64,000 nucleotides of DNA from NCBI RefSeq assembly GCF_019649055.1, contig NW_026570350.1, positions 186,001-250,000 on the forward strand. The letters are read 5' to 3'. Both the position numbers and the translations under genes were made by a program. This DNA comes from Paramacrobiotus metropolitanus (lineage: Eukaryota; Tardigrada; Eutardigrada; Parachela; Macrobiotidae). Positions 203 to 64,000 of the stretch are shown piece by piece; the stretch's first letter is position 1; the number at the start of each line of letters is the position of its first letter. Under the pieces are notes generated by a model. The model saw only the letters and a list, made by a program, of their open reading frames with translations. It ran no database searches and was not told the DNA's origin.

Positions 203-679
203 CTACACCTCATATTCTGTACTGTCAAGCTGCGTGTGATTTACGTGACAGTCCGCATCGCCGTCATCCGGCCGCTCAGTCACATAACCATCAACGCTCT
301 CGCATTCATCCGGCATTCGCTCCGCTGTTACATCAGGCTCTGGTGGTGCCGGTACCCACGCTGCCGACGGAGGATACACGTGCACGAAAATGACGTAGCG
401 TGGCGCCGCGGGCGATTCAAAGTGCAGATGCAGGTAGCCCTTCGCGATGGCCTCGGCCAGGGTGTCATTGTCATCCGGCACCAGGGTCCCGTTGGACAGG
501 ACGATGGGCGTATCCGCCGGCAGACAGAGCTCGCGTAGCGTGGCGTAGTGCAGCTCGGCCATGGTGATGGCTGGGTCAGCGTCCGTGTCGCCAAATAGGA
601 ACATGGGCGGCGTCTCGTCACGTTTAAACTCGCCCGCCGGGTGGATGTACACCAGCTTGAGGGGGATGTCCGCCACCAT
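203..679 (-). CDS. orphan protein with a ubiquitin-like (beta-grasp-like) N-terminal domain, 158 aa
   Basis: Starts at the ATG at 679..677 (MVADIPLKLVYIHPAG) and ends with TAG at 205..203. The open frame runs further upstream but holds no ATG there. A possible acceptor (gccggcag) lies about 20 nt upstream, so an earlier exon cannot be excluded. Residues about 4-105 align by eye with the N-terminus of the 571-aa protein at 4288..6003: PLKLVYIHPAG against PLEIRVIYMNADG, ELCLPADTPIVL against ELHLPADAHVEL, and YVIFVHVYPP against YVLYAYVYPP. The strand/helix/strand spacing and the LPAD...L...L pattern recall ubiquitin-like folds (inference). The last 45 residues are acidic and probably disordered. 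Function unknown. It differs from its relative in lacking the repeat region and the C-terminal V-x-V segment. Confidence 0.7.
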   Translation of the reverse strand: MVADIPLKLVYIHPAGEFKRDETPPMFLFGDTDADPAITMAELHYATLRELCLPADTPIVLSNGTLVPDDNDTLAEAIAKGYLHLHFESPAAPRYVIFVHVYPPSAAWVPAPPEPDVTAERMPDECESVDGYVTERPDDGDADCHVNHTQLDSTEYEV

Positions 680-2832
680 GTTGCGAGAAAATTTTCTGCC
701 GGCAATCGAAAATAAATAACTGGTCAATACGGATTCGATGACGCGCACGTATAGACCGTCAAAATTCTCAAATTTTATATTTTTCCAATAGCTTATTAAT
801 TAACGAAGCTGCTTAAAGAAATCAAAACCCGCCAACCATTTTTACGATTTTCATCCAAAACTGCAGTTTGTAAAACTAAGATCGGCAGGAATTAGGAAGG
901 AATAACCATGCCAAACCTTACCTTACGTGTTCAATATATATTCGTTTAAAAATCAGTACGTAAGCGTACGACGAATATAGAAAAAAATAATTGAACTCTT
1001 CACTGGATGCTATGCAGGCTACTTCACAAGCACTAGTGGTAAAATCTACGGGAGTGAAAGAGCGGTTCGATTTCTTTTACAGGAGCATGCAGAAGTGGCC
1101 GGTGCAAAGTTCAAGCTAGTGTTATATAACCGCGGCGCTGTTGCGGCACAGGTCATGCTGTACAGATACACAGGTGTTTCGAATTTGTTCGTTAATGCGT
1201 AATCTGGCCTATGAGCCAGTGGTCAACCGGTCAATGCCCTAGCCAAAGTGCATACCATGGAAACTGTGTTGTGCAATGGGTCGGTCTTCATGATAACGCG
1301 GGATTGTTCAATCGTAGATGCAATCGTCTAAAGAGTGTATGATTACATGCCGGATACCGACAACGCTGCCGGGATTAGCAGCCCCGGAAGCCTCATGTCG
1401 CCGACGCCGTAAACTGTCGGCGTGACGGATGCAGGTCACATTCGCCTTGACGAAAACGTCAGAAGGATTTTTTGATTAAATGTCTTAAAATTTCTCAATT
1501 ATATTAACGGCTTTACCATATTCATTAAATAAAATTTTGCACATAAAATGGTGAGAAATTTCGGCGTGGATTTCGTTTTGGAGCTAGCAAAACGATCGGA
1601 TCCATTTCGTCGCAAATCCCGACTGAACGCTGGTGCAACGTGCCAAAGCATGTCCGGTGCCGGGACTAACTGGAAAATGATTTCCCAACTGCTTCGGATG
1701 GCGTTCTTTACCACCAAGGGCAGATACTGGTCATGCACCGCGGTATTTTAAAAAAATTACTTAACCGGATTGTCGCACTGTTGTGTACGCACTTGCTGGC
1801 GGTCTGTTGTTTTTGGTCCCTCAAGTATGGAACATATGTAAAACAGAATTCAACAAGCCGCATCCAGATACCAAACGTATACGACGAAAATTAACGAAAA
1901 TGTAAAAACATAAGAACCTACTTGCATAATTTTGCATTAATACAATACTGCATTGCGAAAACTTCAACTTTTAAAGTTTGTATACCTTTTGCCGATAAAT
2001 ATGGATAACTGAATTTTAGACTGGGAAGATTCAAAGTCATCGTTGCATTTCGTCCAGTGTCGCCATTTCGCTACTACATAAATAGTGGCTTGGTATTAAG
2101 CAGTCAATTGTATAACATTGAGGAACAGCAGAATGAAGGCCCTGTTAAAGATTAATTTTCCGTTGTTACGTTCTACTTTTAGTAATAACATTGAACGCTT
2201 TGAGTATGAACACCGGAAAAACTGCACAAGCACTGGCTGGTTGCTTTTGCGATGGTTTTTGTGGCACTGCGAGTAGCTCTGTGCGACGCCGGCATAGTCA
2301 GTAAAGGTTGAAAACTTGAAATTAATGTACAAGCCAGAATCATAATTAGTTGCGTAAAGGTACAGCGAAAAATACGAATTCATGGGTTAAGCTTAGGTAG
2401 TGTAGTGGCTATTGCTACTTTGTATAAGCGCCAATGTTGCAATATCTGTATTTTTACGCAACTACTCTGTATGTAATTATGAATGTGGCTTGTACAGCTT
2501 TTCTGAGTTAGAAGCAAAATTCTATGAATCTTGTTGCATTTCCTTAAGTTTAACAATAATTATTAAACATCCTGTTGCGCGTGCACGGACGGCTGTTTAA
2601 TTCGTGTATCCGCACTGCCGATCCGAAATTCACAGAGTCAGAATTTTTCACACCGCACGCTTTTATTTAATTATTGTGCTCGGAACCTGAACACAGCTGC
2701 ACGACAACTACTGTAAATCCGCAGCATCCGCTACACCGTATTACATAAACAATATCTCTTTAGCAGCAACTTATCGACACCACAACGGCTGCAGTCGGCA
2801 AATACAGACAAAATACAAATTCAACGTTAACG
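680..2832. other. intergenic, no gene supported
   Basis: Unique-looking AT-rich DNA between two minus-strand small genes. Short open frames at 1499-1751 and 2096-2600 have no family resemblance and no consistent splice context. A minus-strand AATAAA at about 2667..2662 lies about 165 nt past the stop of the 73-aa gene and may be its polyA signal. Confidence 0.5.
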
Positions 2833-3054
2833 TTAGAACTGTTTCTGGATGGTATACACCTGTCCATCTTCCAGCTCCGCGGTAACTGTGCACGCCACGA
2901 CCTTCTTACTGGAGACGGACTGCAGGTCGGTCTGCAGAGAACCAACGGTGGACGGGGGCTTCACAGGGCTGCTATCGTTTCCGGGAACGGAAGGCGGTGA
3001 GGGTGGTGGCTTCGATGCCCCGGCATTATACGGGGCAGGGACTACTGGTTCCAT
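2833..3054 (-). CDS. small orphan protein with the cluster's C-terminal V-x-V/DGQ segment, 73 aa
   Basis: ATG at 3054 (MEPVVPAPYNAG), stop at 2833. The first 40 residues are rich in Pro, Ser and Ala and look disordered. The last 34 residues align with the C-termini of the 571-aa protein at 4288..6003 and the 65-aa protein at 8953..8756. The shared pattern is a helix-like L..xL.., then V-x-x-x-V/A, then DGQ or a variant, then a terminal hydrophobic strand ending in Phe or Phe-Met. The end here is ELEDGQVYTIQKQF. Three separate open frames ending in the same segment argue that this short frame is real. It may be the last exon of a longer gene: acceptor-like ttttacag lies just upstream, and a degenerate copy of the N-terminal domain sits at 3453..3265 on the same strand. 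Function unknown. Confidence 0.6.
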   Translation of the reverse strand: MEPVVPAPYNAGASKPPPSPPSVPGNDSSPVKPPSTVGSLQTDLQSVSSKKVVACTVTAELEDGQVYTIQKQF

Positions 3055-3264
3055 GATCGTCTACTGTAAAAGCGCCGGAAACGCAAGAAATACCGTATAA
3101 TCAAGAGGAACGATACACGGAATAGCTAAGCTAAAAGTACCGTACTAGATCGCTGGAATTAAACACAAAAGTAAGATTTGTACAATGGCACGTATAAACT
3201 CGAAAGGCATCGAATAATTTTCGAAATGAAACAAGCATCAGCTATTTATACTCGGCCGTACATA

Positions 3265-3453
3265 TTAGCAGTTATGTGCCTGAAATAATTCTCTCAGTAT
3301 TTGATTGGCCGGCGATGAAAGCAGCTTAATCGGCCTAAATATTTCCAATACGGATGTGTCGTCAGCAACTGTGTGTTGGCCAAGAATGTATTTCTGACGG
3401 CCGTCAGACCAATAGAAAAATTTTATCGCTAACGGTGATTCCTCATTGGTCAC
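3265..3453 (-). pseudogene. degenerate or partial third copy of the ubiquitin-like domain
   Basis: The open frame has no ATG at its start (GTG at 3453). Its residues SPLAIKFFYWSDGRQKYILG resemble PLEIRVIYMNADG of the 571-aa protein and PLKLVYIHPAG of the 158-aa protein. A following LLSSPANQILREL may match the LPAD...EL helix and loop. The YVYPP end of the domain is missing, and the frame stops at 3265. It could be a 5' exon of the 73-aa gene at 3054..2833, which would then carry both halves seen in the 571-aa protein, or a decayed duplicate. I could not find a clean donor to join them. Weak but consistent resemblance. Confidence 0.35.
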
Positions 3454-4287
3454 GCGATAACGCTGTTTTTTCAGTTTTCACTCAAAAAATCAGTTTTTAT
3501 GCCGCATGCGTCGAACTGGCTCTCAAATGCTCACGTTGTTTACGAATGCAGCAGCTCGTGGAGTTTTCGCTGCCAATTTTGAATGTATTTTGTGACTACG
3601 ACCTTTGAAAACAACTCTTGATTCTTTCGGATCTTTTTGAACTGGAAGCCTGTGTTCTGAAAGGTGAGTAAATGAGAGTTTTGTATTATTGCTGCGTGAT
3701 TTTCGTGAAGCTTTACATCTATACATTCGTACTATTCGTGAGTGATATTCTGTTCCCCAGACCTCTATCTGTTTTTAGTGTACTACGTATAAAAATCAAC
3801 TGAAAGTTGTTTAACTTTAAATAATGTTATTCGAATGTTTGCGTTTTAATTACCGCTTCGCATACGAAGTATAACTATATTATAATGTACTGATAGTCGC
3901 ATTATATGGCGGTGACACTTTCCCGGCCTGCTGCAGAATATGCGCGCCGGGTGCAAACGCTTAAGCCTTCCAGGCTATCTGGTACCTATGATATGTATGT
4001 TTTTTATTATCAAACCGGTTTTAGGTATACAGAATGTGTAAAGAACTGGAAAACAAATTATTAAGTAACGAAATGAAGTTTAGTGATTTTTCCGCGGAAA
4101 AATTACAACGAGAGCGTTTTTTATGCGAAAAGCATCGAAGTAGTACAGATACAGTACATCATAATGAATACTTGTACAATACATTTTATGCTTTCTGTTT
4201 GATATTTACGCCCATGTTGTAAGTGTGCGGCTTATGGTAAATATTCGTTGCAGATTACTCATTCCGCCCTTTTTCTCTGGACGCAGC
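3454..4287. other. intergenic spacer between divergent orphan genes
   Basis: Separates the minus-strand partial copy from the plus-strand 571-aa gene and so probably holds their promoters. A TATAAAA-like stretch is at about 3789. No gene is supported; the 62-aa open frame at 4034 has no recognisable features. Confidence 0.4.
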
Positions 4288-6003
4288 ATGGCCATTCCGC
4301 TCGAGATCCGCGTGATCTACATGAACGCCGACGGCAGCGCCCCCCTGCCCGGGACGAACCCGCAGCCACACGCGGACGGGAGGCCGGACATGCTGTGGTG
4401 CGGCAACAAACCGACGGCGACCCTGGGGAAGGTGCGGCAATGGGCGATGGGGGAGCTGCATCTTCCGGCCGACGCCCATGTTGAGCTGTTCGGGGAGGTC
4501 AACAAATTGCAGAACGAGGAGCTGGTGGTGGACGCCATCAAGAAGCAACTTCTGCTCCTGGGCGACCGCGATGTGGAGGATCCCTGCTACGTACTGTACG
4601 CTTACGTATATCCACCAAAGATCCCCGGGGAAAACCCGGATGCATTGAACAGTGCGGCAGGGAAAGCCGCGAGCAATGTGGGACCTTTAGGGATGCACAA
4701 CGGTCCGCTGTTGCAGGCAGCAGCGGCCGCCGACGAGCGCAGTATGTCTCCAGAGAGAAAGAAAGCTTGCCGTGGGATTCCGGTAACGAAGCCGCCGTCA
4801 CCAAAGAAAGCTGCACCGCTGGCGTCATCGGCTGTTGGTAATATGCAACCTGAGAAACCGACCGCGTTATCATCGGCTACTGGTAGCGTTTCATCTGGTA
4901 ACGTGGCTGCTGCTAGTTTCCCGTTGAAGAACCCACTTCCATCGCTTGGGAATAGCGATCCACCGGGCAAAGTGGCTGGTACCGTGCAACCCGCAAAACC
5001 TACTCTGCCTATAGCAGCTCTTGGCACCGCCGCTTCTGGCAGCGTGGCAGTTAGTTTGCCGTCAAAGAACCCGCTACCACCGCTTGGGCATACCGTTTCA
5101 TCTGGTAAGGTGGCTGCTGGTACCGTGCAGCTGGGGAAACCTGCTCTGCCGCCTATAGCAGCTCTTGGAACTGCCGCAAGTGGTAACGTGGCAGCCGGTT
5201 TGCCGAAGAAACCACCACCACCGTCTGCTAACAGCGTTTCATCCGGTAAAGTGGCCGCTGTTAACTTGCAACCCGCGAAACCTACTCTGCCTGTAGCAGC
5301 TCTTGGAACCACCGCATCTGGCAACGTGGCTGGTGGTTTGCTGTCGAAGAAACCGCCACCACCGCTTGTTAATAGCGTTTCATCTGCTAAAGTGGCTGCT
5401 AGCGCCGTGCAACCTGGGAAACCTACTCTGCCGCCTGTAGCAGCTCCTGGTACCACCGCAACTGGTAAAGGGACTGTCGCTGGTTTGCCGTCGAAGAAAT
5501 CGCTACCACCGCATGGGAATAGCGCTTCAACTGGGGAAGTTGCTGCTGGTACCGTGCAACTGGAGAAGCCAGCGCTGCCACCGATAGCAGCTCCTGGTAC
5601 CGCCGCATCGGGTAACGCGGCTACTGGTAACTTGCCACCGAAGAAGCGCACTCTACCGCCACCAGTGATTATTGATGCCGTTCCATTTGGTAACGTAGCT
5701 GGTGCTGGCACGCAACCAAAGAAATCTTCAGCATCCGTGCATGCGGCCGCTAGTATCTCGACAGCGGGTAACGTTCCTGCACGTGCTGAGGAGCCGACGC
5801 TGGAGGTGCCACCTATACCGTCGTCCAGGGGTGTTGCCTGGGGACCGACGACTATCGGGAACCCGCCACCGGCGTCCAATGCGGCGGATTTCTTAAAGAA
5901 CGTCCTGCGCTCGATCGGCAGCGACACGACCAGCATCCAGTCCGTCGAGGTGACCATCACGGTAGCCGACGGGCGCAAAGTGAAGGTGTCCGGATTTATG
6001 TAA
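4288..6003 (+). CDS. orphan protein: ubiquitin-like domain, Pro/Ala repeat array, C-terminal V-x-V segment (571 aa)
   Basis: I chose the ATG at 4288 (MAIPLEIRVIYMNADG) because homology with the 158-aa protein at 679..203 begins there; the frame is open back to 4225. Residues about 1-110 form the ubiquitin-like segment (TLGKVRQWAMGELHLPAD, ending YVLYAYVYPP). Residues about 195-490 are a low-complexity array of about six units of roughly 47 residues (pattern SSGKVAAGTVQ..KPALPP, then GTAASGNVAAGLP, then KKPPPP). The last 35 residues match the ends of two nearby small proteins (SVEVTITVADGRKVKVSGFM here). No signal peptide or membrane segment. A single long exon, with AATAAA at 6254-6259. The architecture joins both halves of the local family. 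Function unknown; scaffold or structural roles are only guesses. Confidence 0.75.
   Translation: MAIPLEIRVIYMNADGSAPLPGTNPQPHADGRPDMLWCGNKPTATLGKVRQWAMGELHLPADAHVELFGEVNKLQNEELVVDAIKKQLLLLGDRDVEDPCYVLYAYVYPPKIPGENPDALNSAAGKAASNVGPLGMHNGPLLQAAAAADERSMSPERKKACRGIPVTKPPSPKKAAPLASSAVGNMQPEKPTALSSATGSVSSGNVAAASFPLKNPLPSLGNSDPPGKVAGTVQPAKPTLPIAALGTAASGSVAVSLPSKNPLPPLGHTVSSGKVAAGTVQLGKPALPPIAALGTAASGNVAAGLPKKPPPPSANSVSSGKVAAVNLQPAKPTLPVAALGTTASGNVAGGLLSKKPPPPLVNSVSSAKVAASAVQPGKPTLPPVAAPGTTATGKGTVAGLPSKKSLPPHGNSASTGEVAAGTVQLEKPALPPIAAPGTAASGNAATGNLPPKKRTLPPPVIIDAVPFGNVAGAGTQPKKSSASVHAAASISTAGNVPARAEEPTLEVPPIPSSRGVAWGPTTIGNPPPASNAADFLKNVLRSIGSDTTSIQSVEVTITVADGRKVKVSGFM
4900..5740 (+). repeat. in-frame coding repeat, about 141 bp (47 aa), about 6 copies
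   Basis: Tandem units inside the 571-aa gene. Each carries a KVAAGTVQ-like part, a KPxLPPIAALGTAASGN part and a KKPPPP part. Copies differ by substitutions and small in-frame indels, consistent with selection to keep the frame or with recent slippage. Edges are approximate. Confidence 0.75.
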
Positions 6004-6955
6004 GTTTCACACGTACACGGATACGTCTGTCTTCAGTTGTTTCTTGTTCTTTGTGATATGGCTGATGATTTCTCTTGTTTTGTTGATGTTGTTGATCTTG
6101 TTTTAAGCATTTTAACAAGTGTTTATACAGATGGTGAGGCTGAATCTTGTTGCGAAACTGATGTAATTTCCTATAAACCTTCGCTTCGCAAGAAGCTACA
6201 ATAATGTTTTTATTGCTCTCTATGAGACGTGTAGTCGTAGAGATTTTTGTTAGAATAAAAAACGAATGTGCGACTTAGTAAGCGAATATACGAAATTCGT
6301 AATTATGCGAACAAGGAACAAAATTTATTTGGCTTGTACATACTCGTACTGTACATCTGTGTCGATTCCTGGCAGCAGTAGTTTCAATAATACGGGACAG
6401 TAAAGCTCTCCTAAACAAAATTTTGACCTTACCGTATTGCCTGTATTAATACTGATTACAACACAAGCTCTTGGTACAATAACCTGTCAAAATAATGAGG
6501 GCGCGCCCAAGTCATTGTGTTCTGGAAATTCCGGTAAAGCGCCGCATCTCGGAGCCTGCAGCATAAAATTATCGAGCGGCGAACCAATTACCGGCAGCAA
6601 ATCTGTTGTCTTGCCGTAAGTTGCAGGGCAGAATGAAGTCTGATGCAGTCGCCAGAATCAGTGTACTGCCGTGACCTATATGAATATGGCCCGGTGCCGG
6701 AAATTTGCAGGATCAACCTTCTCCAGAATAATCCCGATCAAATGAAACACGGCTCACAAGGAAGTAGCTGTATGGGTGAGACTTACTAACGCTTCCGGGA
6801 TAGGAAATCTGATGCGTAATACGTTGAGCACAGATAACACGTAACGATGGCGGATATGCCACCATTCAGTTAAAGGCTTAAGAAAAAACAAGTACTGTAG
6901 AAGATACAAGATACGGATGCAAATGGATTTCGGAACTGCCGGGTCGATTAAATTG

Positions 6956-6988
6956 GCCGATCAAGGACAAATCTTGTCCTTGATCGGC
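6956..6988. repeat. perfect hairpin, 15-bp stem, 3-nt loop
   Basis: gccgatcaaggacaa, then atc, then its exact reverse complement. No U-tract or gene context that would make it a terminator. Lies just before other repetitive DNA. Confidence 0.8.
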
Positions 6989-7199
6989 ATCATGATTGGC
7001 TTCCCGTTGTTGTTAGTGGAGACGTTGCTGGGACCGAAGACATCGGAGCTGGAACTACCGATGTGTACCGCTTGTGACTGATGGCCACAAGGCCCTGCGC
7101 GGCCGCCACGGTGACCCTCCCTCCTTTTCGGCGACCGTCACTTCGTCGAACGGACACTATGCCGACCCGCCACAATGTCGCGGGACTAGCGTTTAGCTA

Positions 7200-7335
7200 A
7201 ACCAATCCCACTTTTCTTAGTTCTTTGAGGTTTCTCGGGTTATCCTAGGTTTCTTAGGTTTTTCTAGTTTTTTAGCTTTGTCGGCTTCTCCGTTTTCTTA
7301 GGTTTTCTTAGATTTCTTAGGTTTTCTAGCCGTCG
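7200..7335. repeat. degenerate array of TTTCTTAGG-like motifs
   Basis: Many imperfect copies of ttcttaggttt. The same motif in the opposite orientation (cctaagaaa) forms an array at 15222-15335, with shorter traces at 18228-18275 and about 59795-59820. Probably the same repeat family inserted several times. Confidence 0.65.
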
Positions 7336-7412
7336 CTCTCGTAAAGGTCGACGTAGTGCCATCGACGTTATGTCAGTCGACGAAGTGTTAGTCGACGAAA
7401 TGTCGGTGAGCC

Positions 7413-7566
7413 GACCTTTACGAATCTTTACTGCTGGTTAACATATGATGGCGGTTCAAGCGAATATTCCCTGAGGTCAGACCTCTGCCAGCACTAAGAT
7501 GACCTGCCACTGCGAGGCAAAAAACCGCCATCATATGTTAACCAGCAGTAAAGATTCGTAAAGGTC
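7413..7566. mobile_element. fold-back inverted repeat, 44-bp perfect arms, 66-bp loop
   Basis: Left arm 7413-7456 (begins gacctttacgaatctttact) is matched exactly by the reverse complement at 7523-7566. The loop (7457-7522) is non-coding. Perfect arms imply a young insertion or gene conversion. May be a MITE or the core of a larger repeat that starts in the 7200 array. No transposase is visible. Confidence 0.7.
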
Positions 7567-8755
7567 ACCAGCTAACAAAGCGATATAGATGATGTAGAGG
7601 CTAGTTACCAGAACGTACACCATAACCACAGCGAGAAATGCACCCCGCGGTTTGTCGACGTTTGAAGTTGGTGTTACATATTTACATAACTCCCGCGAAT
7701 ACATAGACCGCTGATTGCTTGCTGAGTTGAATTCATTTAATTCAGTACAGTTGTGCTTCCCTTTCCAAAGGGCTGCAGTTCGCTAATGTCACAAAATAAA
7801 TTTTAAGAGTTTTAAAATTCATACTAAAGTTTGAAAATACTGTCAACGTATTTAAAAAAACGCAGGATGTAGAACCATTCTCATACCTGAGCGCATCTAA
7901 GTGCAAGATTCAGAGAAGATCGGTCCTGAATCCGACTTTTGGTGCACCTGTTTGCATTTTAAAGTGTGAGGACCACATATTACCCAGAATTCCCCATCCG
8001 GATGTTATGCACACGTACGGTTTCTGCACCCATGTACAGTAGCTGAATGGATATAACTGCAAGTGTATTAGCTACAGAATGCTTAGAAACGATGGAAGGA
8101 ACTGTTTGGTGGAAGTGTTTGAGCTTGCGGAAGCGCGAGATTTTATGTTTGTATGCAAGAAATTTGTGCTAGGTACTGGAATGCACTGCCGTTAAGCGTT
8201 AGCTCCTGCTTCGAAAATTAGATTCCGGACTGCTTTTGCATTCCCGCTGTCTGCTCCATTTGTAAAATGATATTTTACTGGTGTTCTTGCTTCCATGGTT
8301 GTTTGAATAAAACTTAAAACCGTCGTCTTGCAGCTGAAGGTGTGCCCATGGATTTAAAGAAATCGGTGAGCGCCGCCGTTTTACTCATCACAGTTATAAT
8401 GGACAATCGGCTTAATATTTTCTATGAAATTTTTGCGCATTTCTAAATCGGCTACGGTGGCGGCCGACGAAATTCAGCTTTCAAACATGTTAGCCACAAT
8501 TAGTGGACGAAAATATCAACTGGTAATGAGACTGGATATACAGTACTCAAAAGACATTCAGAACGCTTACCAAATTTAATTCAATAGACAAATTCAACCA
8601 AAAAAAATACAAAATGATAATAATCTATACAACAATTTACTGCAAAATAAGAACGCTATTCTGATAACTGTTTTTACTAAAAACTGCATAAGCTTACTTA
8701 AGCTGCTCGGAACAAACAACATAAACGCAATAAAATAAAACTGAACAGACAACAA

Positions 8756-8953
8756 TCAAAATTTACGGAATACGGTGATGGTCTGGCCATTAGGCAGATC
8801 TGCCTTCACTTCCACGGACTTCACCGGGTTTCCAGCATGTTGCTGGAGGACTTCCTGTAGCGCGGGAGCAGGATTGGCTGGTTGCGCGTCCGCTTGTCCG
8901 GCTGCGGCTGCTTCATCCGCCTGTCCCGGGACGATGGGCTGATTAGCATTCAT
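8756..8953 (-). CDS. small orphan protein with the cluster's C-terminal V-x-V/NGQ segment, 65 aa
   Basis: Starts at ATG 8953..8951 in a good context (gctgaccATGAATG); the frame extends upstream only through non-ATG codons. The first about 33 residues are rich in Ala, Gln and Pro (MNANQPIVPGQADEAAAAGQ). The last about 33 carry the family segment, VKSVEVKADLPNGQTITV, ending FRKF, aligned with SVEVTITVADGRKVKV of the 571-aa protein and with the end of the 73-aa protein at 3054..2833. No signal peptide or membrane segment. An acceptor-like tttcag lies just upstream, so a 5' untranslated exon is possible. Function unknown. Confidence 0.6.
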   Translation of the reverse strand: MNANQPIVPGQADEAAAAGQADAQPANPAPALQEVLQQHAGNPVKSVEVKADLPNGQTITVFRKF

Positions 8954-10315: not shown

Positions 10316-13300
10316 CTATCCCGAGTGATTGCCCGCGCGGAGGCGCTGCTGCGGCGACAGACTGTTAGGCGTGGTCAGGACGAGGAGGTCGAGGCGGACG
10401 GTGAAAGGAAGCCGGGTGGTGGGCAGCTGGTGCCGGATCACGGCCACCATGGCCAGCGTGTCCAGCCGCGGCAGGAATTCCATCATGCAGAGATCTTCGT
10501 GGTCCACCAGGCCGTTGTCGGCCAGGAGGTTGGCGGCCTCCGGGATCTGGTTCGCCGGGGAGGTGCCGCCGAAGAGGAAGAGGCGATCCTCCACCACGCA
10601 GCAGCACATGCGCCGGCGGGGACACGGCACCACGGGACTACTGCCGAATTCTACGAAACAAATTGTGTTACGATTTTTTAAGGGACGAAACCCATTTTAT
10701 CACCGTCGACCAGTTTTAATTCGGTCAAATAGTACGAGTACTTTTAAAAAATCAGGCTAGTATTAACGGCCGTTAATGCCAGTATTAATAATAAAAGCCA
10801 CTAAATAATTTTATTCATTATAATAATTAATCTATGAAAATTTATTTACTATTCTGCACATTTAAAATAATACATTTATTTTCGGTTAACAATTTTATTA
10901 AGTAATAAAGTACTCAAACAATGTGCAATGCACACATTAATCCACAAGTATTCGTTTTTTATTCTAGACAACTAAAGTAAAACCTTTATTTTCGGTCAAC
11001 AATTTCGTTAAATACTCAAATACAAGCCTGTCGACAAATTGAGCATTAATAATACAGCAAACATTAGAAATTTATGGGCAACACGTAAATCTTTACTAAC
11101 GTAGACTACGTAGTAAACGTAGTGCAGTGACCATCATTTAAGCTGTAACTTCGCGCCAATATCGCTCTACCTGTTCCTTTACATGCTGAATTTGTCAACA
11201 GGCATGTGCATGTACTACAATCAATAAACTAGTTTTTAAAATTGAATAAGTAAAAGTAAACGCAAATTTCATTTTTCCCTTACTGATCTCGTTCCAGCGC
11301 ATCAGCCGCTGATCGAACACCCACAGATCGTTGAAATGATCGCGCCCATTGAACCCGCCGAAGATGTGCATGCGGCCCTGGTGGAGGAACGAGGCGTGGG
11401 AGCGGCGGGCGGGCGGGGCATACCGCAGGACATGGTGCAGCCAGGCGTTGTGCTCCACGTCGTATTCGTGCAGGAAGTTCTCGTACTTCTCCGTCCCGGT
11501 GTGCAGGCCCTCTTCGTCCAGATCGCCGCGGCCGCCCCACAGAAGGAGGTGCCCGTCCACCACCTGCATGGTGGCGAAGTCGCGCGGCATCGGGCGCAGG
11601 CCGGCGGGGACGACGTGATGCCAGGTCATGGTGGGGATGTGCAACCGGTACAGCTCCGACGAGAACCGGTCGCCTTGCTCTTCGAACCCACCTGGGAATA
11701 AAACATAAAATAGTTGCGCACATAAAGGTCAGTAACGCATTTTATTTTCCTTTCTTTTCTTATTCATTTTATTTTCTTATTCATTTTGTTTTGATTTTAT
11801 TTTCTTATTTAATTTATTTTCTTATTCATTTCATTGTATTCTAAACTCATTAATTTAGTTTTCCTTCTACTAATTATTTAGTTAACTCACACTTATTTTT
11901 ATATTAATAATATTATCTGTATTTTACGCCTAATGTTGTACCGTATTTTATATTATTTTAGCAAACGAAAAAAGTTCTGAGGAACCTTTATTTTTAAAAA
12001 AAATTGTATCGTTTTTTTTATATTGTTAGTATTAAAGGAAAAAATGTTAGCCTGCGTAGGCATCATCAGTTGTTTTCATCGCTTAAAATCATTAATTATA
12101 AATACTCTCGGGAGTCGGTACAGCTTCCACGAAATAAATACTTACTCTCGGTACATCAGTGTGTCAAGTAAAAATAAATAAACAATTCCAATGAAATTAT
12201 TATGAAATGTTTTTAGTAAAAATGAATGATATCGGTAATAAAAGTAATTAAAGAGCATTACGTAGGGTATTAGAAAATATAAAATAAATAATAGATTAGA
12301 ACTAAAACCGAAGAAACCTAAAGAAAAACAGCAAAACAAAAACAAATTGCTGCGTACCGAAAATGTACATATCATCGCCGAGGATGGTGGCCGCATGCCC
12401 GTCGCGCTTCTCCGGGACGATGCCCTGGACCGCCGGTCGCCACCAGACCGCCCGCTGCGTATCGTACACGTACAGGGTGTTGCAGGCGCCGTCCAGGTCG
12501 TTGCGGCCGCCCCAGATCAGCACGCACTGCTGCCAGACGACGGCCGAGTGGCCGTAGCGGTGGAAGGGGACCTGCGATTGCCGGCAGTCCTCGTCAAAGC
12601 CGCCGGTGGGCGGCGGCAGGGCTTTCCAGCGCAGGGTGGCCGTCTGCAGGACGTAGATCTCCATCGGCCGATTGGACTCGAAATCCTCACCCGAACAATA
12701 CCCGCCTATCGACAAAATTAGACTGGTTCAATAATTTTTAAATTAAATATTGTCACTTAAAACAAATGCTAACTTTCCTAGATATTGTATGTCTACTTTT
12801 TATATGAGCGCCAGATAATACTGAATTTGTAAAACTGTTAATCATTTTTTAATCAGATGAATTATTTTTAAATATATTAATTATTTTTAATAATTATTAA
12901 TTATTTTAATTACTATTTTACTTTGAAATTATTTATACTTATTTTTCTTACATTGTTATTACAGTATTAATCATAGTAGTCTAGTAGCATGCCAGCAGGC
13001 TGCAAAAATGGAAATAAATACTAGTACATTGCGTTTCTATTTTTCCATATCCTTTGTTTTCTGCCAGATTTTATTCATTTGTACATCGTAAATTAACTGC
13101 AATGATTTTCACATCACAAAGTCTAGGAAAATTTTCCTTTTTTCGGTGTATAAAATTGTATTTAGATGAAATACAAATATTTCTAATAATTAATAAGTGA
13201 CTGATTTTAATGGATCTTAACAGAAATCGTTGTAAAATGGCTACATGCGGCGGAGAATTTCGGAACATCGGTAGCAAACAACACCACTTAAAAATTAAAA

Positions 13301-62328: not shown

Positions 62329-63759
62329 ATGCCGGCGGAGGACACCGAGGAACCGCCAGCTCCCCAGCCGCTCATCCCGCACTACTACTACCGCTGGATG
62401 CAGGTATGTGGATTTCACCCGTATTCTCTCTCCCACACCCCCGGGCTCTCGCGGTCCGACCTCCTGTGGATGCTGTGGAGCGGCGGGCTCTTCATCCTGC
62501 AGGCCATCCTCCTGCAAATCGCCGGCGCTGTCATGTGGGACGTCAAAGGCGACGAGGTCAGCAAGCTGGACCACTACGCGCTGATCCAGTACACGTATAT
62601 CAACATGTTCCTGGCGCAGTACCTCATCATCGCCATCCTCTGCGCCGTGCAGATGAAGAACCTCTATACTCAGGTGAAGCTAGGGGTCAAACCACAATTC
62701 TTAGGTTTTAAATTTCAAACATCAAATCAAATTAATTTTTCTCATTTCAAAATCAACGAGACCCTCGCGTGCTCTACTCTGTAAATGGGAAAATCAAGTT
62801 TTTTTAAGTTGTGAGAAAGGTCACTTTGATGCAGCCAAAATCGGTCGCTGCGTATAGTTAATTTGCTACGGCCCCGAATACTTTGGAGCGCTCAACATTT
62901 TCGTACAATATTTTATGGAACCATTTTTAAGGGAAGAAAAGACTGCATTTAACAAAGATTTGACGAAAGGCCGTCGATAAAATGATAAACATAGACGGGT
63001 TATCATTATTTTAATCAGTCAGTGGCTTAAAGCGAAAAATTTCCGAAAACACTGTTTAAAAAATCGCTTCTTATTTTTCAAATTTCGATTAGTTTTTCAA
63101 AGTTCGTTTCATTCTCAGGTCATTTCAAAAATGATTCCGAAGTGTTTGAGTTTCACCCTTAGGTAGAGCTAGAGGTCCGCTCCTATCTCTGCTTCCCCAA
63201 AACCTTACGGAAACTAGACCGCCGGTGGAGGGCGACCGCGGTATACAACGTGACCTTTGCCATATCCGGCGCCATGACCGAACTGATCTACAAAAGCGCC
63301 ACGGAGCCTTCAGACTACTGGTACCGCGACCCTCTATCCGTGTGGGGCTACCCCGTCCGCAATTACGTCGCCCAAATCTTGCGTTTCATCCACAAATCCT
63401 CCGTGTACTGTGCCATCACGGTACCCTACGGGATCCTCATTACGCTGGCCCTGCATCTGCGCACCGAGTTCCAAGTGATTGTGCGGATACTTGGCGAGTT
63501 CCCGGAGCGGGAAATTGCGTTTGAGGCGTTGCGGTTGCGGTATCAGCGGTTGTTGTTCGCCAAGGATTTGTTGAGTGACACGTTCGGGGTGTTCATTGCC
63601 GTTGACTGCTTCTGTGCGCTGCTGACGTGGTGTGCGTTGGCCAGTGAGACGTTACATTTTGATGCGGATCATACGGATCGCACGCTGCTGATCTCCTCGT
63701 CGTTTATGATGATCAACAGTATTGTGCTGCTGCTGGCGCTGACGCTGTTCTTCGATACA
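62329..63759 (+). CDS. gustatory-receptor-like seven-transmembrane protein (3' end outside the window)
   Basis: Exon 1 62329-62673 (ATG, MPAEDTEEPPAPQPLIPHYY), exon 2 63163-63759. Both junctions are phase 0 with GT/AG borders, and a donor (gtaagt) at 63760 shows that the gene continues. The 314 codons seen contain about six hydrophobic segments: WMLWSGGLFILQAILLQIAG, YINMFLAQYLIIAILCAV, VTFAISGAMTEL (weak), VYCAITVPYGILITLALHL, VFIAVDCFCALLTWCALA and MMINSIVLLLALTLFF. A charged loop, VRILGEFPEREIAFEALRLR, sits before the fifth. The short N-terminus with Y-R-W-M-Q-V-C-G-F-H-P recalls the arthropod/tardigrade Gr superfamily start. Such proteins are ligand-gated channels with an intracellular N-terminus (family knowledge). 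The conserved TYhhhhhQF motif, expected in the last helix, would lie beyond the window, so the family call is provisional. Confidence 0.6.
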
Positions 63760-64000
63760 GTAAGTGACGTGACCTTTATGACCTTAAGGGTGTTTCCTAT
63801 ATTGGGTCAACAACTGTAGTTATTTGGAATTTTTTGTTTATTTCGGTAACGTTACGTTGTTATATAAATATTTTTATAAAGGTCACCCAGAGACTGTAAC
63901 GAGGTTTTAAAACGATTGATTATAGTAGTAAAGTTTCGCTCAAATTTTGGAAGTATAACCTTTGCCGAATATATAGTATCTAAAGATTGCTGACCGAAAA
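63760..64000. other. intron of the receptor gene
   Basis: Begins with gtaagtgacg. No acceptor and following receptor exon could be recognised before the window ends. Confidence 0.6.

What the first reader, a model, noticed from the sequence alone, without database searches (positions are those of the whole stretch)
203..8953. Cluster of orphan genes built from two shared modules
Within 9 kb, five open frames share parts. A ubiquitin-like N-terminal module occurs at 679..203, 4288 on, and (degenerate) 3453..3265. A C-terminal module of about 30 residues (V-x-V ... DG/NGQ ... F) occurs at the end of the 571-aa protein and of two small proteins (3054..2833, 8953..8756). The modules occur together in one gene and separately in others, on both strands. 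This looks like a lineage-specific family expanding by partial duplication. I recognise no known family. Alignments were made by eye.
Basis: partly seen in the sequence, partly recalled or inferred. Interest (0 to 1): 0.75.

Follow-up and report, generated by a model that had tools for sequence, protein, structure and literature searches.

The report
Mix-and-match ubiquitin-fold gene cluster
In what is probably a water-bear (tardigrade) genome, a small family of genes without a clear match in the protein-family library searched is built from a ubiquitin-like head and a tiny tail module that occur together in some genes and alone in others, which suggests, but does not prove, short proteins that regulate their longer relatives.

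Summary
The observation largely holds. The window is contig C130:186001-250000 of a 169.8 Mb assembly, probably the tardigrade Paramacrobiotus (inferred from size). U1 (679..203) and G1 (4288..6003) share a homologous N-module, predicted as a ubiquitin-like fold. The C-module of G1 is homologous, by profile-profile comparison, to the ends of S1 (3054..2833) and S4 (8953..8756); it is predicted as helix plus beta hairpin, with no significant PDB match. The 'degenerate' copy at 3453..3265 is not supported. The order long/tail/head recurs (two sets, one with the long gene inverted, plus one long/tail pair), which points to segmental duplication. Five copies carry lesions or lack the homologous start. 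Nine of 11 members tested have an acceptor-like site just before the ATG; the two misses have stops in the head. Tail-only genes look older than long ones, so fusion fits better than partial duplication. Most likely mechanism (inferred): the tail is an interaction module and tail-only proteins act like microProteins. BMI1-PHC2-like pairing of head with hairpin, and neutral birth-and-death, remain open.

The parts
203..679 (-). U1: head-only gene, 158 aa (UBL module 368-679, then an acidic 54-residue tail with 15 D/E and 2 K/R); acceptor-like site 16 nt before the ATG
   Evidence: ORF; paralogues; homology; acceptor; composition
2833..3054 (-). S1: tail-only gene, 73 aa; helix-hairpin module 2836-2952; two overlapping acceptor-like sites 9 and 6 nt before the ATG
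   Evidence: ORF; paralogues; homology; acceptor
4288..6003 (+). G1: long gene, 571 aa from the ATG that is shared with G2 and G3 (the frame is also open to an upstream ATG at 4234, 589 aa)
   Evidence: G2 and G3 have an in-frame stop directly before the homologous 'RSM'
4288..4617 (+). UBL module of G1 (predicted beta-beta-alpha-beta-alpha-beta)
   Evidence: AF2 pLDDT 73.5, pTM 0.66; Foldseek and VIA
4618..5859 (+). Ala/Pro/Gly/Ser-rich, basic linker (36 K/R, 13 D/E over about 415 aa), containing tandem repeats of about 141 bp at 4895-5622; disorder inferred from composition only
5860..6000 (+). C-terminal helix plus beta-hairpin module of G1
   Evidence: AF2 pLDDT 74.5, pTM 0.42; hhalign to the tail-only genes
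8756..8953 (-). S4: tail-only gene, 65 aa; module 8759-8878; acceptor-like site 10 nt before the ATG
   Evidence: ORF; profile without it finds it at 5.6e-5
3265..3453 (-).

Best explanation
Shown by sequence comparison: a small family made of two modules, an N-terminal module predicted as ubiquitin-like (UBL) and a C-terminal module of about 40 residues predicted as helix plus beta hairpin. Four long genes (G) carry both, joined by a basic, repeat-built linker of low-complexity composition; three head-only genes (U) carry the UBL; six tail-only genes (S) carry the hairpin module behind a short Pro/Ala-rich arm. Nine members share an acceptor-like site just before the ATG. Inferred: the long gene arose by fusion of a head-type and a tail-type gene, and groups of long, tail-only and head-only genes were then copied along the contig. 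Inferred mechanism: the tail module is a self-association interface that assembles long proteins and displays several UBL heads on flexible arms for a partner; the tail-only proteins act like microProteins, joining or capping these assemblies through the same module, and the head-only protein competes for the head's partner.
For: Homology of both modules across gene types. Predicted UBL fold with the alternating hydrophobic pattern kept in the 5 copies compared. Predicted helix-hairpin. Acceptor-like site within 20 nt of the ATG in 9 of 11 members tested, against 157 of 927 ATGs in the cluster stretches and 236 of 1839 in the window; the 2 misses, G4 and U2, have stops in the head. dN/dS of the tail module 0.14-0.64 over the 6 long-gene pairs and 0.18-0.40 over 5 of the 6 pairs among S1, S2, S3, S5, the sixth being saturated. 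Tail-only genes more diverged than long genes, one of them on C39. Five of seven G1-G2 gaps are multiples of three. Recurring gene order from the coordinates. The microProtein definition (single-domain relatives of multidomain proteins that act through a shared interaction domain) is from the starts of the abstracts of PMC6003976 and PMC7534434 in the listing.
Against: No binding, expression or RNA evidence exists here; that the tail module self-associates is not shown. dN/dS of the tail module is 0.30-1.13 in the finite pairs with S6 and up to 1.31 between long and small genes, and dN/dS of the long-gene UBL is 0.74-0.93. Codon-position tests, made on 6 of 21 head pairs and 9 of 45 tail pairs, are weak: p below 0.05 in 1 of 6 and 3 of 9; for the long-gene UBL 0.3-0.46 in 3 of 3. 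The G1-G2 contrast between head and tail is not significant (Fisher p 0.20). Secondary-structure positions are not more conserved in identity than loops (10 pairs, smallest p 0.27). Both models are of moderate confidence from shallow alignments. The tail link between long and small genes rests on profile-profile comparison. The non-coding first exon is clear only for S5. Five of 13 members carry a lesion or lack the homologous start.
Confidence: 0.4

Rival explanations
1. The two modules are each other's partners: the C-terminal hairpin docks on the UBL head of the same or another family protein, as the PHC2 hairpin forms an antiparallel sheet with strand beta2 of the BMI1 UBL. Head-only and tail-only proteins would then be the two halves of one interaction, and long proteins could chain head to tail into polymers.
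For: Best VIA match of the head is the BMI1 UBL, 5fr6 (Z 10.1, 80 aligned, rmsd 2.2), with PCGF1 RAWUL also high (4hpm_B Z 9.5); the tail is predicted as a hairpin with an added helix. BMI1 binds a 24-residue PHC2 fragment as a beta hairpin (abstract and passages of PMC5105191). Both modules are kept on one contig.
Against: Archaeal ubiquitin, Parkin, Atg8 and Atg12 (Z 9.6-9.7) differ by under 1, so the polycomb match is tied. The RAWUL profile lists no match on C130 (weak matches may be missed there). No complex was modelled.
Confidence: 0.25
2. Birth-and-death of weakly constrained genes: the cluster is mostly duplication debris, with few or no functional products.
For: Long-gene UBL dN/dS 0.74-0.93 and no third-position excess in the 3 pairs tested. 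G4 and U2 carry stops, U3 and S2 lack the homologous ATG, G2 carries two single-base gaps relative to G1.
Against: G1 and G3 are open over 571 and 403 codons; tail-module dN/dS is 0.14-0.64 over the 6 long-gene pairs; 9 members have acceptor-like sites and the two with stops in the head do not; the head's hydrophobic pattern is kept in 5 copies.
Confidence: 0.2
3. A fast-evolving recognition family (immune, reproductive or anti-parasite): the UBL head diversifies to track a changing partner while the tail keeps assembling the protein.
For: G1-G2: head dN 0.29 with dS 0.32, tail dN 0.06 with dS 0.45; clustered copies with turnover and broken members.
Against: The head/tail contrast is not significant by codon position (p 0.20); no head pair among long genes exceeds 0.93; no expression data.
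Confidence: 0.12

Closest known systems
Ubiquitin-like (beta-grasp) domains: ubiquitin, ISG15, Atg8, Parkin UBL, RAWUL of BMI1/PCGF1
   Same: Predicted order of strands and helices; Foldseek E 5.4e-4 to 5.9e-3 over the 50 rows shown, VIA Z 8.9-10.1 over the 50 rows shown
   Different: 8-21% identity in the rows shown; no significant Pfam match; about 20 residues between strands 1 and 2; no Gly-Gly directly behind the module in U1, U3, G1 and G2
BMI1 UBL - PHC2 HD1 hairpin pair (PMC5105191, abstract and passages)
   Same: UBL plus a beta-hairpin partner occurring on separate proteins
   Different: Here the hairpin carries a predicted helix and is also fused to a UBL protein; pairing was not tested
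microProteins (PMC6003976, PMC7534434; abstract starts in a listing only)
   Same: Small single-module relatives of a larger multi-module protein
   Different: Here single-module relatives exist for both modules of the parent, in one cluster, and the small genes look older than the parent; regulation untested
BON domain (Pfam PF04972)
   Same: One of ten tail modules scores 0.0015 against it
   Different: The other nine are not listed for it at E up to 10 (HMMER filters drop weak matches); only about 40 residues

Membership tests
Ubiquitin-like fold | beta-grasp topology with structural match to known members | tested here: met
   On a predicted model only:
Conjugated ubiquitin-like modifier | C-terminal Gly-Gly exposed for conjugation | tested here: not met
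   No GG in the roughly 30 residues behind the module in U1, U3, G1 and G2, and none in the whole tails of U1 and U3; U1 ends in STEYEV. A GG occurs far downstream in the G1 linker
RAWUL (PF16207) | Match to the Pfam profile over its cut-off | tested here: not met
   Seven heads scanned against Pfam at E up to 10 list only UNC80_C, 0.23 in one. The genome search lists C2, C155 and C386 only, none over the cut-off and none on C130 (weak matches may be missed)
RAWUL-type hairpin pairing | UBL binds a beta hairpin beside strand 2 | not tested
microProtein | Small protein with a single module homologous to a module of a larger protein | tested here: met
   S1, S3, S4, S5, S6 of 65-74 aa; hhalign score 36 vs at most 21.9 in 200 controls
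microProtein | Shared module mediates protein-protein binding and the small protein regulates the large one | not testable with these tools
   Needs binding and expression experiments
BON domain | Pfam profile match across members | tested here: inconclusive
   1 of 10 members, E 0.0015

The most novel reading that the evidence does not exclude
A self-contained assembly circuit in one cluster: a fusion protein with a ubiquitin-fold head and a new helix-hairpin assembly tail sits beside stand-alone versions of both of its modules, so that the ratio of head-only, tail-only and fused proteins sets the size of a polymer or the valency of its UBL heads. It would have arisen by fusion and been copied as a head/tail/fusion group.
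Probability: 0.18. Interest if true: 0.7.

Novelty: new variant of a known kind. Interest (0 to 1): 0.4.

Why it matters
If true, it is an animal gene cluster in which a multi-module protein and single-module relatives of both its parts are still linked and can be dated against each other. That would make the origin of microProtein-like regulation (fusion first or loss first) directly testable. It also adds a UBL subfamily without a significant Pfam match and a small tail module without a significant PDB match.

Tried and rejected
Pfam on single proteins and on the 7 head and 10 tail rows: nothing convincing. PDB profile search: best E 0.24 for the head (partial match) and 0.047 for the tail (a 16-residue strand match); not used. 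Fold search of the tail module: best Foldseek E 0.86, best VIA Z 3.8; taken as no match, not as proof of a new fold. RAWUL by profile: no match on C130. Degenerate UBL at 3453..3265: rejected. Relatives of the head in viral contigs: 5 pattern matches, none confirmed. Elongin B was considered from memory because of its loop before the last strand; it is not named in the 50 rows shown or, and was not pursued. Conjugated modifier: rejected for lack of Gly-Gly. Literature searches for 'tardigrade' with 'ubiquitin-like domain' and 'gene cluster' and 'Paramacrobiotus metropolitanus' with 'orphan gene' found 0 papers; this covers only those words in that library. Two microProtein searches with other terms found 0 papers.

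Species: inferred only. 169.8 Mb in 533 contigs here against 170.48 Mb, 684 scaffolds and GC 43.46% for Paramacrobiotus sp. TYO (passages of PMC8277472). Matches to the trehalose-synthase family PF00982 on three contigs fit that paper's subject but do not prove the species.

Only S5 is clear, because in the others the stop may lie inside the intron, depending on which acceptor is used.
Full report
Setting. The window is G000:C130:186001-250000 (+) of an assembly of 169,799,020 bases in 533 contigs. Its size is close to the 170.48 Mb reported for the tardigrade Paramacrobiotus sp. TYO (passages of PMC8277472), so I take it to be that animal or a close relative; this is an inference. Gene names below (G long, U head-only, S tail-only) are mine.

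Observation. Four frames in the finding's 9 kb are real and share parts: U1 679..203, S1 3054..2833, G1 4288..6003 and S4 8953..8756. The fifth item, 3453..3265, is not supported.

Family census. Seven protein queries against the whole assembly (G1, U1, S4, S1, S5, S6, G3) find 13 members. On C130: G1 190288-192003 (+), G2 about 180036-181112 (-), G3 177586-178794 (-), G4 about 170996-172227 (-); U1 186206-186679 (-), U2 167526-167912 (-), U3 2085-2576 (+); S1 188836-189054 (-), S2 175940-176128 (-), S3 169763-169975 (-), S4 194759-194953 (-), S5 259356-259577 (-). On C39: S6 130004-130198 (-), E 7e-4 and 1.3e-3 with S5 in the two directions. Further places at E above 0.5 on other contigs (C410, C395, C40, C109) are not counted. 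The tool warns that weak matches may be missed.

Are the modules really shared? Head: profiles built from one gene type find the other (U3 5.6e-8 and U1 2.7e-7 with the long-gene profile; G copies at 2.5e-5 to 0.023 with the head-only profile), and the profile-profile score is 68 against at most 21.9 in 200 column shuffles. Tail: single profiles across long and small genes reach only E 0.9-2.6, in the right register, but profile-profile comparison gives probability 95 and score 36 against at most 21.9 in 200 shuffles and 11.5 reversed. So the head is firm and the tail is good but rests on the more sensitive test.

Folds. AlphaFold2 on the head of G1 with 5 rows gives pLDDT 73.5, pTM 0.66, order strand-strand-helix-strand-helix-strand; two of five models were that good (73.5, 72.6) and three poorer (42.7-53.8). 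Foldseek: 2 PDB chains at E up to 0.001, both of an archaeal ubiquitin complex, and, as far as titles tell, ubiquitin-like chains or proteins containing them through the 50 rows shown. VIA: Z 10.1 for the BMI1 UBL 5fr6 and 8.9-9.7 for the other 49 rows shown; the top rows are ties. Hydrophobic residues (A and C counted) sit at alternate positions of strand 1 and at i, i+3, i+6 of helix 1 in 4 or 5 of the 5 copies, though identity is no higher in predicted strands and helices than in loops (10 pairs). The tail of G1 with 9 rows gives pLDDT 74.5, pTM 0.42, helix 5-19, strands 28-34 and 40-46, and no significant PDB match.

Gene layout. Of 11 members with an ATG at the homologous place, 9 have an acceptor-like site within 20 nt upstream: G1, G2, G3, U1, S1, S3, S4, S5, S6. 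Background is 157 of 927 ATGs in the cluster stretches and 236 of 1839 in the window. The 2 misses, G4 and U2, have stops inside the head. U3 and S2 lack the homologous ATG and were not in this count. The members are related, so these are not 9 independent trials. G1, G2 and G3 also share a second candidate, TTGCAG, 29-34 nt upstream. Whether the first exon is coding is mostly open: S5 has an in-frame stop between its acceptor and the ATG, which marks the ATG as the start; in S1, G2 and G3 the in-frame stop may lie in the intron depending on the acceptor used, and in S3 it is part of the acceptor itself. No transcript data were available.

Selection. dN/dS: tail module 0.14 (G1-G2) to 0.64 over the 6 long-gene pairs; among S1, S2, S3, S5 0.18-0.40 in 5 of 6 pairs, the sixth saturated; with S6 0.30-1.13 in the finite small-gene pairs; between long and small genes up to 1.31, with several saturated. 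Head: 0.43-0.60 over the 3 U pairs, 0.74-0.93 over the 6 long-gene pairs, 0.63-1.04 between the types. Codon-position tests on selected pairs are weak: p below 0.05 in 1 of 6 head pairs and 3 of 9 tail pairs. Broken copies among these sequences raise the ratios. I read this as constraint on the tail, modest constraint on the head-only genes, and an open question for the head of the long genes (relaxed or diversifying).

History. Order along the minus strand recurs: G4-S3-U2, G3-S2, and S1-U1 with G1 beside them in the opposite direction. G2 and G1 share 82% DNA identity over about 490 bases through the 3' end in opposite orientation, so an inverted copy is fairly recent. The head tree puts U1, U2, U3 together with support 100 and G3 with G4 at 72 (output before the time limit). 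Two tail trees separate long from small genes (support 0.999 and 90); the branching among small genes is poorly supported. Small genes are more diverged from one another than long genes, and one lies on C39. This favours fusion of a head gene with a tail gene, then copying of groups. It is an inference without an outgroup.

Linker and charge. The G1 linker of about 415 aa is rich in A, P, G and S with 36 K/R and 13 D/E; the tail behind the UBL of U1 has 15 D/E and 2 K/R in 54 residues. Linker repeats of about 141 bp run from 4895 to 5622, 5.1 copies. In one alignment G2 lacks 651 bases relative to G1, a multiple of three; five of the seven G1-G2 gaps are multiples of three and two are single bases, so as assembled G2 stops before its tail module.

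Mechanism. Most likely, in my judgement, the tail is a self-association module and S proteins act like microProteins on G proteins. The rival with direct structural precedent is head-hairpin pairing as in BMI1-PHC2 (PMC5105191, abstract and passages). Neither was tested. Neutral turnover is the null and is not excluded for several copies.

Verdict. It does not reach the RAWUL profile and lacks the sequence mark of a conjugated modifier. Moderate interest, rising if the stand-alone modules are shown to regulate the fusion.

Noticed in passing
window 7413-7566: Perfect 44-nt inverted repeat with 66 nt between the arms, like a small hairpin or MITE-type element inside the cluster.
   Followed up: no
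window 6956-6988: Perfect 15-nt inverted repeat with a 3-nt loop.
   Followed up: no
window 7213-7404: Short tandem arrays: units near TTTCTTAGG and near GTCGACGAAATGTCA.
   Followed up: no
C130:164001-166049 (L002 and start of L003): Long array of tandem copies spaced by roughly 136 bp, seen as self-matches at 84-97%; satellite-like, next to the cluster.
   Followed up: no
L004:6772-7962 (+): F-box protein, 396-codon frame, between long gene G2 and U1 (PF12937, 1.1e-5).
   Followed up: no
L002:160-3945 (-): Two large open frames in one reading frame (591 and 669 codons, one stop between) with coiled-coil-like and GN-rich sequence; no Pfam match for the 669-codon frame, the other not scanned; gag-like by eye only.
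   Followed up: no
window 63163-63819: Frame with a sub-threshold match to the 7tm odorant receptor family (PF02949, 18.9 bits, cut-off 25.8).
   Followed up: no
window about 11195-12727 (-): Kelch-repeat (LZTR1/KLHDC2-like) beta-propeller gene in more than one exon.
   Followed up: no
window 2833-4288: S1 and G1 are head to head, with 1.2 kb between their ATGs; G4/S3 and G3/S2 lie in one direction. A shared promoter is possible.
   Followed up: no
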